Source: Clostridium beijerinckii
GTDB lineage: Bacteria > Bacillota > Clostridia > Clostridiales > Clostridiaceae
Reading direction: 5' to 3'
Assembly: GCF_036699995.1 (NCBI RefSeq)
Contig: NZ_CP144906.1
Location: forward strand, 1,178,001-1,242,000
DNA: 64,000 nt
A program made the translations under genes and the position numbers. Each line of letters starts with the position of its first letter. The stretch's first letter is position 1. A model generated the notes under the pieces. The model worked only from the letters and a program-made list of their open reading frames with translations, had not been told where the DNA came from and made no database searches. Shown here one piece after another: positions 6,904 to 50,093 of this stretch.

Positions 6904-7914
6904 TTATTCTTGACCTCTAAAAATGGGAGAACTAATAGCGATTTTGTTATTATCCAGTGCTATCTTTATTACATACCACAACTCAGTTTTTAAGGGCTCG
7001 TGAGAATACAAGTATTTTACTTTATTTAAATTCAAGTTAGATATTTTTTTTATTATAGTCCCACCAGTAGATATTATATCAATTTCTAATATTTTGTGAT
7101 TAGGATCATGGGCAAAAATTGAAAATTGTAAATTATCATCTTCCATAGGTATAATATCGCCCATAAATTCATTATTTATTGTAAAGTACATAGTTAAAGT
7201 TCTGGATTCTGTTGAATAAGTGTGTCGTTTTCTAAAAGCGTCGACTAGAGACTGAGTTGTAAGCTCTTCTGCAATTATACATGTTAAATTTTCATCGTCA
7301 CCAAAGTTTAATCTATGATTATCCTGACCATTGATTGCGCCTAGTTTCCAGTTTTTATCGAGTAAATGGTAATAATATTTTTCATATCTTAAATACTTGT
7401 TTGGATAAGATCCATTTCCAACTTCTATTGAAGTTATTAGTTTATTTAAAATAGAGTTGTATTCTAAATATGTTATTGTTTTGTGGGGATGGTTAATTGA
7501 AATAAATGCATTAGGATTATTAAGCATCCATAAAACTAATAGTTGCATATTATTTACTGTTCCAGTAAAGAACCTGTTTGGATTTACTACATTAATGTCT
7601 CCAAACGGATTAGTTTTGCTTTCAAAACCAACCACAGCTAAAAAGTTTTCATGTTTTTTATTATAACGAACAGTTAAATATTTTAGCGCATCCCATCTAC
7701 TTAGCTCAGAGCTTTTTACTTTTATTGTTTTTGTTAAATGATTATTATGGTCTGTTAATATAAGGAAATTAAGGCCGTTATGTCGTGCATAATCAAATGC
7801 TTCAATTGGAGTTCCATGTCCAGTGGAAAAATTGCAATGGGCATGAGGAATTCCATAGTAAAAATTCAGATCATCTATATTAAGCTTATTTTTAGGTGAT
7901 TTTTTTTTCCCCAA
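6904..7914 (-). CDS. PHP-domain phosphoesterase-like protein
   Basis: 336 residues. Metal-binding motifs of the PHP superfamily are visible: PHAHCNFSTGHG near residue 23, LTDHNNHL near residue 54, VVGFESKTNP, SINHPHKT and NGQDNHR. The C-terminal 100 residues look like an added beta-rich domain (YFTINNEFMGDI). PHP proteins hydrolyse phosphoesters; the substrate is unknown here. The start is TTG at 7914 with AGAGGT 7-8 bases upstream; no in-frame ATG lies nearby. Monocistronic. Confidence 0.8.
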   Translation of the reverse strand: MGKKKSPKNKLNIDDLNFYYGIPHAHCNFSTGHGTPIEAFDYARHNGLNFLILTDHNNHLTKTIKVKSSELSRWDALKYLTVRYNKKHENFLAVVGFESKTNPFGDINVVNPNRFFTGTVNNMQLLVLWMLNNPNAFISINHPHKTITYLEYNSILNKLITSIEVGNGSYPNKYLRYEKYYYHLLDKNWKLGAINGQDNHRLNFGDDENLTCIIAEELTTQSLVDAFRKRHTYSTESRTLTMYFTINNEFMGDIIPMEDDNLQFSIFAHDPNHKILEIDIISTGGTIIKKISNLNLNKVKYLYSHEPLKTELWYVIKIALDNNKIAISSPIFRGQE

Positions 7915-46180: not shown

Positions 46181-46296
46181 TAAATAGGAATATTATGTAT
46201 ATAAGGAAACTGTGATTCGAATATTTACTTGGGCACTTTATATTCGATGAGTTAATAGTGCAACCGACCTTTTTATTAAGGTCGGTCTTTTTTTGT
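46181..46296 (+). ncRNA. Candidate small RNA or terminator-type leader
   Basis: From the predicted start, TCGAATAT (46216) can pair with ATATTCGA (46242), enclosing GGGCACT which could otherwise pair with AGTGCAACC. These are competing pairings. The RNA would end at the terminator hairpin ACCGACCTT/AAGGTCGGT with CTTTTTTT (46263-46294). The GYD gene starts 50 bases on, so the element could be a riboswitch-like attenuator or a free small RNA. Confidence 0.4.
46263..46294 (+). terminator. Strong terminator upstream of the GYD gene
   Basis: ACCGACCTT and AAGGTCGGT form a 9-bp GC-rich stem around TTTATT, followed by CTTTTTTT. Confidence 0.88.
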
Positions 46297-46346: not shown

Positions 46347-46649
46347 ATGTTATTTTTTAATAGGTTAAAGAAATATGATGAACATGGGTTTGATTCAAAA
46401 GGAATTCATAAAAACGGTACAAAATTTAATGAAGAGGGTTTTGATAAAAAAGGGGTTCATAAAAATGGCACATATTTTAATACAGAAGGCTACAATATAG
46501 ACGGGTACGATAAATATGGATATGATAAAGAAGGATATAATAGCGGAGGATATGACAGGCAAGGATATAACAAGATGGGATATAATATAAAAGGATATGA
46601 TAGGCAAGGGGAATTTTTAGAAACAAGATATAAATGGAAAGTGAAATAG
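46347..46649 (+). CDS. GYD/GFD tandem-repeat protein, unknown
   Basis: 100 residues, almost all repeats. Two 17-residue units (GFDSKGIHKNGTKFNEE and GFDKKGVHKNGTYFNTE) are followed by eight five-residue units of the form G-Y-(N/D)-x-x (GYNID, GYDKY, GYDKE, GYNSG, GYDRQ, GYNKM, GYNIK, GYDRQ). The ends are basic. There is no signal peptide or membrane helix. Short Gly-Tyr-Asp repeats are known in scattered bacterial and phage proteins of unknown role. GAGGTG precedes the ATG. The gene follows the terminator-bearing leader at 46181-46296. No function is proposed. Confidence 0.7.
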   Translation: MLFFNRLKKYDEHGFDSKGIHKNGTKFNEEGFDKKGVHKNGTYFNTEGYNIDGYDKYGYDKEGYNSGGYDRQGYNKMGYNIKGYDRQGEFLETRYKWKVK

Positions 46650-47111: not shown

Positions 47112-47181
47112 CTGTATTGCAAGAATTTTAGCCGTAATTGTGAATTGTGAAATGTGCATTGTGAATTGTAACAAACATATG
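47112..47181. repeat. Half of a TTGCAA-ended repeat
   Basis: Begins at the internal marker TATTGCAAGAATTTTAGCC and continues to GTGAATTGTAACAAACATATG, so only the right half is present, abutting the palindromic element. Confidence 0.6.
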
Positions 47182-47216: not shown

Positions 47217-47279
47217 TTGACATGTAATTCTACAGGGTGTAGTATAAAAATATAAATACTACACCTTGTAGAATTACAT
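47217..47279. promoter_or_regulatory. Promoter embedded in a BlaI-type double operator
   Basis: TTGACA (47217-47222), 17 bases, TAGTAT (47240-47245). The segment 47222-47245 is the inverted copy of 47256-47279 with a single mismatch, a 24-base arm on each side of 10 bases. Each arm holds a site of the form CTACA-N3-TGTAG, which is the core bound by BlaI/MecI repressors. The two sites cover the -10 and the start, so repression of the operon by its own regulator is expected. Confidence 0.88.
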
Positions 47280-47296: not shown

Positions 47297-47665
47297 ATGA
47301 AGCTAGGAAAGATATCGGACGCTGAAATGGAGATAATGAAAATAATATGGAAAAAGAATGATCAAATTACTACAGCTGAGATTTTAGACGCGCTTCCAAA
47401 AGAAAATTCATGGAAGGTAACAACGATAATGACGTTGATATCAAGATTAACTGAAAAGGGGATTTTGAGTGTAACTAAAGTAGGAAAGTTAAATAATTAT
47501 TTTCCTAAGATTACAGAAGAAGAATATAGAGCTATTCAAACGGATAATTTCTTAGAAGATATGCATAAGGGATCAGTTAAAAACTTTATGGCAACATTGT
47601 TTAATAATAAGAAAATAAGTAATAAGGATATTGCAGAGTTGAAAGAATGGCTCAAAGAGGTGTAG
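47297..47665 (+). CDS. BlaI/MecI/CopY-family repressor
   Basis: 122 residues. An N-terminal winged helix starts KISDAEMEIMKIIWKKNDQ, continues with SWKVTTIMTLISRLTEKGIL and LNNYFPKITEEEY; the C-terminal 45 residues are the dimer domain with the region cleaved in BlaI relatives. GAGGAGA precedes the ATG. It is followed 5 bases later by the M56 sensor gene, the classic regulator-sensor pair. It probably represses its own operon through the operator at 47217-47279. Confidence 0.92.
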   Translation: MKLGKISDAEMEIMKIIWKKNDQITTAEILDALPKENSWKVTTIMTLISRLTEKGILSVTKVGKLNNYFPKITEEEYRAIQTDNFLEDMHKGSVKNFMATLFNNKKISNKDIAELKEWLKEV

Positions 47666-47669
47666 GCAT

Positions 47670-48047
47670 ATGAATATTCTAAATTATATTTTGGAAATGT
47701 CACTAGCAGGCAGTTTTATGTTTTTAATACTTTGTTTATTTAGGCCATTTACTAAGAAAACTTTTAGTGCTACTTGGAATTATTATATGCTATTTATAAC
47801 GCTTTTAATTTTTATTATACCTATTGGGAGTTTTGTTAAACTGCCTCAAATAGTGGAACATAAGAATTATTTATCGATGCAGGATAAGAATACGGTAGTG
47901 CAGCAAAATTATGAAAAGATGCTGAAGAGCAATGATAAAAGTGATGAGATAAGAGTTTTGCAAGGGGATGGTACACTTAAGCCTGTGAGCCAGAGTCAAG
48001 TAGACTTAAAGCAGACAAGTAAGTATGGCTCAAAAAATAATGAATAG
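47670..48047 (+). CDS. M56 (BlaR1-type) sensor peptidase, N-terminal piece before frameshift
   Basis: 125 residues. Two membrane helices (about 4-24 and 35-53) and a hydrophilic loop are the start of a BlaR1/MecR1-type membrane peptidase. The frame runs into TAG at 48045 after a run of six A at 48032-48037. Removing one A joins it in frame with the piece that follows (about 769 residues in all). Whether this is a true mutation, slippage during expression or a read error cannot be decided here. Confidence 0.75.
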   Translation: MNILNYILEMSLAGSFMFLILCLFRPFTKKTFSATWNYYMLFITLLIFIIPIGSFVKLPQIVEHKNYLSMQDKNTVVQQNYEKMLKSNDKSDEIRVLQGDGTLKPVSQSQVDLKQTSKYGSKNNE

Positions 48048-49980
48048 AGATATGTTACTTTATGCATGGATATTAGGTGTACTCATACTAGTAATTAAGG
48101 AAACTTACGTATATATTTCTTTTTATGAAAAACTTAAAAGTGTAAGTGATATCATTGAGGATGAGTCTATAATTAATGTTTTTGAAAACTGTAAGAAAAA
48201 ATTAAATATATATAGGAGGATAATTTTAAAAGAATGTGGCGGCATTAAAAGTCCAATGATTACAGGAATATTAACACCTACTATCACAATTCCTAAGATG
48301 GACCATAATCTGGATAAGCTTGAAATAATACTGGATCATGAATTAATTCATTTTAAACGTAAAGATTTATGGGTGAAGGTAGTTGCACTTTTAGCAAATG
48401 TAATCAATTGGTTTAATCCCATTGTTTATATTATTAGAAATAGGATAAATATAATTTGTGAGCTGTCTTTAGATGAACAACTTATAAAGAATATGGATAA
48501 ATCAAAAAGAAAATATTATGGAGAAATTATATTAGAGTTAATAGAATATTCTCAGAATAAATCCCTAAGCTTAGGGGCATCAGTTTGTAAAAGTAGAAAG
48601 GAGATTGAGACACGATTGAAAAATATAGTGTTTTTTAAAAAGTCAAAAAAAATAATTGTTTGTATTTCACTTATAGTAACTATGATTTTTACATCTACAA
48701 GTTTGCTCGCTTCAAAGACTGTATTTGCTAGTAATAGTGATACAGCAAAAAGTGCTAAAGGGGCAGAATTTGCAGTATTTGTAACAGATGATGGGTTATA
48801 TATGTCTGAATTAAAAGAAAATAACCCAGTTCTTCTTGATAAAAATGAAAAAATTAAATTGCCGAAAATATCTAAAGATGGGTCATATGTTGCTTATACT
48901 AAAGAAGATGATTTATATATTTGCAATATAGACACTCGTGAGGTAATTGAAGTAGCTAAAAATGTAGAGTCATATGACTGGAATAATTCTGGAAACCTAA
49001 TTTGCTCTGTTAAAAATGCAGGTATGTCTATGTATAATACCAATACTAAAAAGTTAGTGGATATTATAAGCAATGAGTATGATTATTTTAATATAAATTG
49101 CGATAGTAAAAATAAGGTATATGCTAATAAACAGCTAGAAAGTACTACAGACAAAGGGAAAACTATTAAATCAATAGGTGTAATTAGCTATGACTTAGAT
49201 ACTAAAGAAGAGAATGTTATTTTGGAAGGTAAAGAAGGAAATAATAAAGAGATTGGAGAGCAGTATACAGCATCTGAGTTATTTGAATCCATTGGATCAA
49301 GACCTAATGTTGAAAGAATATCAAGTGATGATAGATATATGTATATATGGAACAAACCTAATTCAGGCTCAATGTCAGCTGATATGACAGAATTTGCAGT
49401 ATATGATCTTTTAAGCAATAAATTTATAGAAAATAATAATATGATTGCATTAGCATATAAAGATAATATTTCTCAAAATCCAGTGGATAGCAGCATAGTT
49501 GCTGTTAATAATGGCGAATATAGAGACATGTATAGTAATAAGGCATTAGGAATTTTCGATATCAAAGCTAACAAATTTACAAGTCTAATTCCAGAAAATC
49601 AAGTGTCAATGACACCGGATTATTCCAGTGACGGAAAGAATATAGTATATTCTGGAGCTAATGCCTTAAAAGATGACATATCACAAAGTTCGAAAAACTG
49701 GGAAAGTGAACCGCACTATATTTATCAAGTGAACACTGAAACAAAAGAAATAACTCAAATTACAAATAACAAATCATTTGATTTCATGCCAAAATATATA
49801 TCAGAAAATCAAATATTATTTGTAAGAAAAGATGGCGATTCATTTAGTTTATGGAAGACAAAAGATGGAGTGGAAACTAAGCTTGCTGATTCTTTGAATT
49901 TTAGATCAACTTCTTATACAAATACTTGGTACTATGGTCATTATAAAACTGAAAATGTTATAGACGTATATAAAAAGTAA
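48025..49980 (+). CDS. M56 sensor peptidase, catalytic and propeller part after frameshift
   Basis: 651 residues if started at the ATG at 48025, which has no ribosome site. A membrane helix (about 10-30) comes first, then the zinc peptidase motif LDHELIHFKRKD near residue 112 and NWFNPIVYIIRNR, then a fourth helix (KIIVCISLIVTMIF). The extracellular part (residues 235-651) is not a penicillin-binding domain. It has TolB/WD40-like blades such as LPKISKDGSYVAYTKEDDLY and TPDYSSDGKNIVYSGAN, so it looks like a beta-propeller sensor. It would cleave or inactivate the repressor at 47297 on sensing an unknown signal. Confidence 0.75.
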   Translation: MAQKIMNRDMLLYAWILGVLILVIKETYVYISFYEKLKSVSDIIEDESIINVFENCKKKLNIYRRIILKECGGIKSPMITGILTPTITIPKMDHNLDKLEIILDHELIHFKRKDLWVKVVALLANVINWFNPIVYIIRNRINIICELSLDEQLIKNMDKSKRKYYGEIILELIEYSQNKSLSLGASVCKSRKEIETRLKNIVFFKKSKKIIVCISLIVTMIFTSTSLLASKTVFASNSDTAKSAKGAEFAVFVTDDGLYMSELKENNPVLLDKNEKIKLPKISKDGSYVAYTKEDDLYICNIDTREVIEVAKNVESYDWNNSGNLICSVKNAGMSMYNTNTKKLVDIISNEYDYFNINCDSKNKVYANKQLESTTDKGKTIKSIGVISYDLDTKEENVILEGKEGNNKEIGEQYTASELFESIGSRPNVERISSDDRYMYIWNKPNSGSMSADMTEFAVYDLLSNKFIENNNMIALAYKDNISQNPVDSSIVAVNNGEYRDMYSNKALGIFDIKANKFTSLIPENQVSMTPDYSSDGKNIVYSGANALKDDISQSSKNWESEPHYIYQVNTETKEITQITNNKSFDFMPKYISENQILFVRKDGDSFSLWKTKDGVETKLADSLNFRSTSYTNTWYYGHYKTENVIDVYKK

Positions 49981-49987
49981 ATATTTC

Positions 49988-50093
49988 ATATATATGTTGC
50001 AAAAATAATACTTCATCATAATTCTAAAAATATTACAAGAATTTTGGCCGTAATTGTGAATTGTGAAATGTACATTGTGAATTGCAATATATA
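49988..50093. repeat. TTGCAA-ended dispersed repeat, copy 4
   Basis: Starts ATATATATGTTGCAAAAATA and ends GTGAATTGCAATATATAAG, with the marker ATTACAAGAATTTTGGCC between. Confidence 0.7.

What the first reader, a model, noticed from the sequence alone, without database searches (positions are those of the whole stretch)
47670..49980. BlaI-linked M56 sensor with a beta-propeller, split by a one-base frameshift
Seen: BlaI-like repressor, tight operator, then a four-helix M56 peptidase with HELIH whose outer domain has TolB/WD40-like blades rather than a penicillin-binding fold. The gene is broken after six A at 48032-48037; one A fewer restores a reading frame of about 769 codons. Known: BlaR1/MecR1 sense beta-lactams through a penicillin-binding domain. 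Inference: this pair senses something other than a beta-lactam, and the A-run could be a slippage switch that turns the system on or off.
Basis: partly seen in the sequence, partly recalled or inferred. Interest (0 to 1): 0.7.

Follow-up and report, generated by a model that had tools for sequence, protein, structure and literature searches.

The report
Broken BlaR1-like sensor with beta-propeller
A Clostridium has an antibiotic-sensor-like repressor and protease pair whose outer part is a beta-propeller instead of a penicillin-binding domain; in this genome the protease gene looks freshly broken by a small duplication, not by a slipping run of A's, and related bacteria seem to have kept only the propeller several times.

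Summary
The pair is real: a BlaI/MecI-type repressor (47297-47665), a paired operator, and an M56 (BlaR1-type) membrane protease with HELIH whose outer domain is a confidently predicted 412-residue beta-propeller. The gene is split into 125- and 651-codon frames. The slippage switch is not supported. Both pieces still look constrained (dN/dS about 0.1), and away from the window's edge it was the only broken gene among 54 compared: probably a recent real mutation, in the loop between TM2 and TM3. In ten genomes (this one broken) the pair is adjacent, and exact operator matches occur only at the pair's own promoter: a self-regulated loop with no other target seen. The propeller also exists alone as a predicted exported protein. 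Fused and stand-alone forms are interleaved in the propeller tree (12 changes; at least 7 on well-supported branches) while the fused M56 halves group together (moderate support), so the propeller was probably set free repeatedly by loss of the protease half. Ligand unknown. New variant of a known kind.

The parts
47217..47245 (+). promoter-like -35 TTGACA / -10 TAGTAT of the blaI operon; the first operator dyad overlaps the -10
   Evidence: consensus scan (23 promoter-like matches in the region, 23.0 expected from shuffles, so weak on its own); TTGAC before the first dyad also in the relatives' promoters (read by eye)
47222..47279 (.). paired operator: two CTACANNNTGTAG dyads in inverted orientation, 24-nt arms 96% complementary
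   Evidence: paired dyads before blaI in 10 of 10 loci, read by eye
47297..47665 (+). BlaI/MecI-family repressor, 122 aa
   Evidence: Penicillinase_R 6.9e-32; BlaI/MecI PDB chains 7.7e-15 to 3e-10
47670..48047 (+). piece 1 of the broken M56 gene: TM1, TM2 and most of the TM2-TM3 loop, 125 aa
48000..48047 (+). break region: short tandem duplication upstream of the (unchanged) six-A run
   Evidence: alignment with nine relatives (for four of them)
48025..49980 (+). piece 2 of the broken M56 gene: TM3, zinc-protease domain, TM4, propeller; 651 aa
48337..48351 (+). HELIH zinc motif
   Evidence: HE[LI][IL]H in 66 of 67 fused relatives, the 67th (P0117) has HELMH
48721..48729 (+). V-F-A after TM4, possible signal-peptidase site
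   Evidence: motif rule recalled; VFA at residues 321-400 in 59 of 67 fused relatives, 5 more in the 80 residues before that, 0 in seven other 80-residue blocks
48742..49977 (+). beta-propeller domain
47115..47171 (+). upstream copy of a 57-nt direct repeat that brackets the operon
50031..50087 (+). downstream copy of the same repeat, 93% identical

Best explanation
In its intact form (in relatives) this is a self-regulated BlaI-M56 relay whose extracellular sensor is a beta-propeller. BlaI sits on a paired operator over its own promoter; binding of an unknown extracellular ligand to the propeller is passed through the TM2-TM3 loop and TM3 to the inward-facing zinc protease, which removes BlaI and raises expression of the pair itself. 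In the window genome the M56 gene carries a recent short tandem duplication in the part that encodes the disordered TM2-TM3 loop, so the receptor is made at best as two separate pieces and BlaI is expected to stay on its operator: the loop is locked low. Shown: gene order, families, operator, predicted fold, break, intact relatives, no exact operator match elsewhere. Inferred: ligand sensing, BlaI cleavage and the locked-off state, all by analogy with BlaR1.
For: Family and fold hits; blaI directly before the M56 gene in 10 of 10 loci, paired dyads in 10 of 10 (by eye); exact operator matches only at that promoter in the 10 genomes that have the pair, none in G004, which lacks it; the break lies in the loop that folds at pLDDT below 50 (residues 58-124 of the intact relative); open frames in 9 of 9 other genomes with a full-length gene; dN/dS against G002 0.04 (blaI), 0.12, 0.10 and 0.11 (piece 1, M56 part, propeller); only broken gene away from the window's edge among 54 compared.
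Against: No ligand, BlaI cleavage or expression was tested. No target besides its own operon was found, which is odd for a sensor. Weaker operators would have been missed: with up to two mismatches the 11 genomes give 97 matches away from the promoter against 90 for the reversed control; one of the 97 (in G028) has a single mismatch and was not examined. A second BlaI/M56 pair in the genome could act on this BlaI, although its box differs.
Confidence: 0.62

Rival explanations
1. Split but still working receptor: the two pieces are made separately and reassemble in the membrane, because the break falls in a flexible loop and leaves every folded element whole.
For: Pieces overlap by 23 bases with an ATG at the start of piece 2; loop predicted disordered; low dN/dS in both pieces; two metagenomic relatives, P0017 and P0053, also begin inside this loop.
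Against: No Shine-Dalgarno-like stretch before the ATG of piece 2, while blaI and piece 1 have one (read by eye; rule recalled). In BlaR1 this loop takes part in signalling (PMC9834060, passages). Low dN/dS only says the break is young. P0017 and P0053 may be gene-calling or contig artefacts; their upstream DNA was not seen.
Confidence: 0.1
2. A-run slippage (transcriptional or ribosomal) makes some full-length protein: the reader's switch.
For: A run of six A lies in the overlap of the two frames.
Against: The same run lies inside one open frame in three close relatives; none of the six more distant relatives has a six-A run aligned there. A one-base backward slip leads to the third frame, not to piece 2 (worked out from the coordinates).
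Confidence: 0.04
3. Sequencing or assembly error; the gene is intact in the strain.
For: Single lesion in an otherwise conserved gene; no reads available.
Against: One-contig genome of 5,552,291 bases, completeness 100; a tandem duplication is not the usual homopolymer error (general knowledge); away from the window's edge it was the only broken gene among 54 compared, and of 55 window ORFs only one doubtful 109-aa ORF was not covered in G002.
Confidence: 0.12
4. The propeller is the product, not only a sensor: the relay controls display or release of a propeller that does its work outside the cell, and the protease half is dispensable.
For: No exact operator site other than at the operon itself; repeated fused/stand-alone switching; decayed M56 sequence with in-frame stops before open stand-alone propellers in G004 and G012; VFA after TM4 in most fused forms, while BlaR1's sensor is shed by signal peptidase (PMC9834060, passages).
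Against: No function known for the stand-alone form; no conserved neighbours; G048 has lost all but a scrap of the propeller too; only 15 of 31 stand-alone forms have VFA near the start, the distant ones lacking it. A stand-alone propeller may serve another receptor.
Confidence: 0.3

Closest known systems
BlaR1/MecR1 with BlaI/MecI (Staphylococcus, Bacillus licheniformis)
   Same: repressor gene directly before an M56 membrane protease (order in those systems recalled); HExxH; membrane helices with an outer loop; outer C-terminal domain; dyad operators; intact P0001 aligns to BlaR1 cryo-EM chains at 5.7e-7 over residues 9-443
   Different: outer domain is a beta-propeller, not the beta-lactam-binding domain related to class D beta-lactamases (PMC9834060, passages); three bases between the half-sites; no beta-lactamase or PBP gene noticed beside the operon; here the gene is broken
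BlaI regulons of Clostridium thermocellum (PMC8457756, passages read)
   Same: very small regulons, autoregulation, paired sites for up to four protomers
   Different: there the regulons hold further genes that the authors put down to a beta-lactam response; here none was found
Stand-alone 'TolB family' / 'PD40 domain' proteins of Clostridiaceae
   Same: same propeller family
   Different: no M56 half, and no blaI seen next door in the stretches examined
NirF/NirN/NirS (cd1) and DPP IV propellers
   Different: 8-12% identity; no evidence of haem binding or of a peptidase domain

Membership tests
BlaI/MecI repressors | Penicillinase_R domain | tested here: met
   110.6 bits over cut-off 22.6
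BlaI/MecI repressors | dyad operator in its own promoter | tested here: met
   two dyads of the form CTACANNNYGTAG before blaI, by eye in 10 of 10 loci; exact pattern at the promoter twice in 7 and once in 3 of 10 genomes. Binding itself not tested
BlaI/MecI repressors | inactivation by cleavage by the partner protease | not testable with these tools
   C-terminal region aligns to MecI/BlaI; no cleavage assay
M56 peptidases | Peptidase_M56 domain with HExxH between membrane helices | tested here: met
   piece 2 142.6 bits; HELIH; intact relative modelled; in the window the domain is split
BlaR1/MecR1 beta-lactam sensors | penicillin-binding C-terminal sensor domain | tested here: not met
   no such Pfam hit; NCBIfam blaR1_generic 130.1 bits against a cut-off of 400, matching residues 9-243 only; sensor_MecR1 45.1 bits against 1200; model is a propeller
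BlaR1/MecR1 beta-lactam sensors | controls a beta-lactamase or PBP2a gene | tested here: inconclusive
   no exact operator site elsewhere; none recognised by eye among ORFs beside the operon (not all annotated); weaker sites not excluded
Beta-propellers of the TolB/DPP IV/cd1 type | radially arranged four-stranded blades | tested here: met
Phase-variable (slippage) gene | repeat tract at the break whose length varies between relatives | tested here: not met
   A run same length in the window and three close relatives; no isolate-level data

The most novel reading that the evidence does not exclude
The propeller of this BlaR1-like receptor is itself the effector: a self-controlled, signal-peptidase-released extracellular propeller. 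The BlaI-M56 part is a removable controller that has been lost many times in Clostridiaceae, leaving an exported propeller free of this operator, and the window shows a first step of such a loss.
Probability: 0.25. Interest if true: 0.65.

Novelty: new variant of a known kind. Interest (0 to 1): 0.42.

Why it matters
BlaR1-type receptors are known almost only as beta-lactam sensors (general knowledge). A family with a propeller in place of the penicillin-binding domain shows that the same relay has been fitted with another outer domain, and the natural set of fused and freed propellers makes it possible to ask whether the domain only senses or also acts outside the cell. It also corrects a tempting but wrong slippage-switch reading.

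Tried and rejected
A-run slippage: rejected, the run is unchanged in three close relatives. My first alignment had five of nine relatives in the wrong orientation, so those five rows meant nothing; one search repeats it for all nine. Regulon beyond the operon: of the 5 exact 13-mer sites elsewhere in the own genome 4 lie inside genes and 1 between genes; of the nine 2-mismatch sites of the longer pattern 7 lie in genes and 2 between genes. Near sites of the other ten genomes were not examined one by one. Conserved neighbours as a clue to function: beside the pair only the purine and fatty-acid genes of the slot; none recognised beside stand-alone propellers. General decay of the gene: dN/dS of the pieces (0.10-0.12) is above the purine genes (0.03-0.06) but like a neighbouring lipoprotein (0.11) and below the Rpn gene (0.15); lineage-specific codon changes 11 silent / 9 replacing in the window against 17 / 6 in G002, Fisher p 0.22. 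RNA element at the break: no Rfam match there; one c-di-GMP-II riboswitch further upstream. Papers: BlaR1 + M56 + beta-propeller, 0 papers; M56 family + BlaI + sensor domain, 0; some searches listed 6 of 6, 15 of 30, 1 of 1, 10 of 4,848 (off topic), 12 of 19 and 8 of 18 papers, and no listed title or abstract start spoke of a propeller-bearing M56 protein. The library lacks most subscription papers. Of two papers passages were read (PMC8457756, PMC9834060). Trees: one search is the quick version, its careful search unfinished; searches are careful trees of 38, 53 and 54 hand-picked rows; some metagenomic stand-alone rows may be partial genes, and the trees carry long-branch warnings. One search's looser test ([VIAL]xA) gave 60 of 67 fused (5 of the 7 misses because the propeller start was not recognised) and 18 of 31 stand-alone; one search's VFA count replaces it. 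One search scored at most 8 candidates per genome, so its counts are lower bounds. The genome-contig scan found 5 loci and added nothing.

Full report
What is there. The window lies in a one-contig Clostridium genome of 5,552,291 bases; the closest named protein is from C. beijerinckii (95% identity). Downstream of purine genes stands a 122-aa BlaI-family repressor (47297-47665; Penicillinase_R 6.9e-32), followed after four bases by an M56 peptidase gene split in two frames: piece 1 at 47670-48047 (125 aa) and piece 2 at 48025-49980 (651 aa). Piece 2 holds HELIH and most of the M56 domain (142.6 bits) and a C-terminal domain with weak propeller hits (DPPIV_N 2.5e-8, TolB 8e-8).

The break. Aligned with all nine relatives that have a full-length gene, the three closest (G002, G003, G007; 96, 92 and 84% identical over piece 2) have the same six-A run at the same place, and their genes are open. 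What the window has and none of the nine has is a short tandem duplication about ten bases upstream. The nine genes are open over 771 to 785 codons between stops. The pieces are not decayed: dN/dS against G002 is 0.12, 0.10 and 0.11 for piece 1, the M56 part and the propeller, and 0.04 for blaI; three purine genes give 0.03 to 0.06, other neighbours 0.07 to 0.15. Of 54 G002 ORFs of 100 aa or more with a counterpart in the window, 2 are not covered in one piece: one at the window's edge and this gene; 15 further G002 ORFs had no counterpart, the G002 stretch being longer than the window. So the lesion is recent and probably real. In the model of the intact relative P0001 (pLDDT 81.3, pTM 0.56) residues 58-124 between TM2 and TM3 are below pLDDT 50, and the break falls near residue 118. 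In BlaR1 the loop at this place (EL1) reaches the sensor domain and takes part in signalling (PMC9834060, passages).

The control loop. In 10 of 10 loci (window and nine relatives) blaI lies directly before the M56 gene, and the promoter holds two dyads (by eye), in opposite orientation in 9 and in the same orientation in G028. Searching 11 genomes with ATTCTACARRNYGTAGWAT gave exact matches only at this promoter: two in 7 genomes, one in 3 (the partner site having one mismatch in G056, two in G017, more in G032), none in G004, which has lost blaI (its slot). With up to two mismatches there are 97 further matches away from the promoter, against 90 for the reversed pattern; one, in G028, has a single mismatch. 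In the own genome 7 of 9 such sites lie inside genes. The genome's second BlaI has a different box, TACANNTGTA (read by eye). BlaI regulons in C. thermocellum are also tiny and self-regulated (PMC8457756, passages).

Fused and free propellers. The propeller profile hits 28 of 206 Clostridiaceae genomes (a lower bound): 14 in the own genus, 14 outside. The full-length fused frame is seen only in the own genus in that sample; outside it 12 genomes have a lone frame of 431-487 codons, and 2 (G097, G183) broken or cut pieces. In the 13 of these 14 whose surroundings were fetched no blaI or M56 gene was found in the stretch (some stretches are short). In G004, in the same chromosomal slot, and in G012, beside the intact pair, an open stand-alone propeller follows M56 sequence with in-frame stops; in G048 the slot holds only a scrap of the propeller. 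A second fused lineage (P0117 and others) is likewise mixed with stand-alone forms. A careful propeller tree of 54 chosen rows needs 12 changes between fused and free (12-13 in bootstraps; at least 7 forced by well-supported branches; 0 of 200 bootstrap trees with one change); a tree of 38 rows needs 7, at least 4 forced. The M56 halves of both fused lineages form one group (89/74; 88% of 200 bootstraps) against 24 other M56 proteins. The simplest reading is one old fusion and repeated loss of the protease half; the support for the single group is moderate, so independent fusions are not excluded. VFA, a possible signal-peptidase site, stands at residues 321-400 in 59 of 67 fused forms (5 more have it in the 80 residues before), and near the start of 15 of 31 stand-alone forms, the distant ones lacking it. 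Stand-alone forms of the window's own group start just before TM4, as if it were a signal peptide. BlaR1's sensor is cut off by signal peptidase at a matching place (PMC9834060, passages).

Conclusion. What it works like: a BlaR1-type relay with a propeller sensor (inferred); what it is here: a recently broken copy. It belongs to the M56 and BlaI families but not to the BlaR1/MecR1 beta-lactam sensors, whose defining sensor domain is not met.

Noticed in passing
window 46196-46278 (+): c-di-GMP-II riboswitch (73.2 bits, E 9.4e-16) about 70 bases before a 100-aa ORF (46347-46649) made of GY-rich tandem repeats of unknown function.
   Followed up: no
window 47115-47171 and 50031-50087: 57-nt direct repeat (93% identical) brackets the whole blaI-M56 operon; recombination between the copies could delete it.
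   Followed up: partly
own genome, 41 matches of AATTGTGAATTGTGAA: Scattered heptamer (AATTGTG) repeats, 22 on the + and 19 on the - strand, none for the reversed control; first half of the contig 16 + / 6 -, second half 6 + / 13 -, as if oriented with replication.
   Followed up: partly
L053 7005-8849 (-), own genome C1:3425005-3426849: Second BlaI/M56 pair; the protease's C-terminal 280 or so residues match no Pfam family at E 0.01.
   Followed up: no
L060 1030-5949 (G003): 1,639-aa ORF that begins like leucine-rich-repeat surface proteins (by eye), before the propeller scrap at 7809-7910 of the same contig.
   Followed up: no
P0017 and P0053: Two metagenomic relatives begin inside the TM2-TM3 loop, near where the window gene is broken; upstream DNA not seen.
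   Followed up: partly
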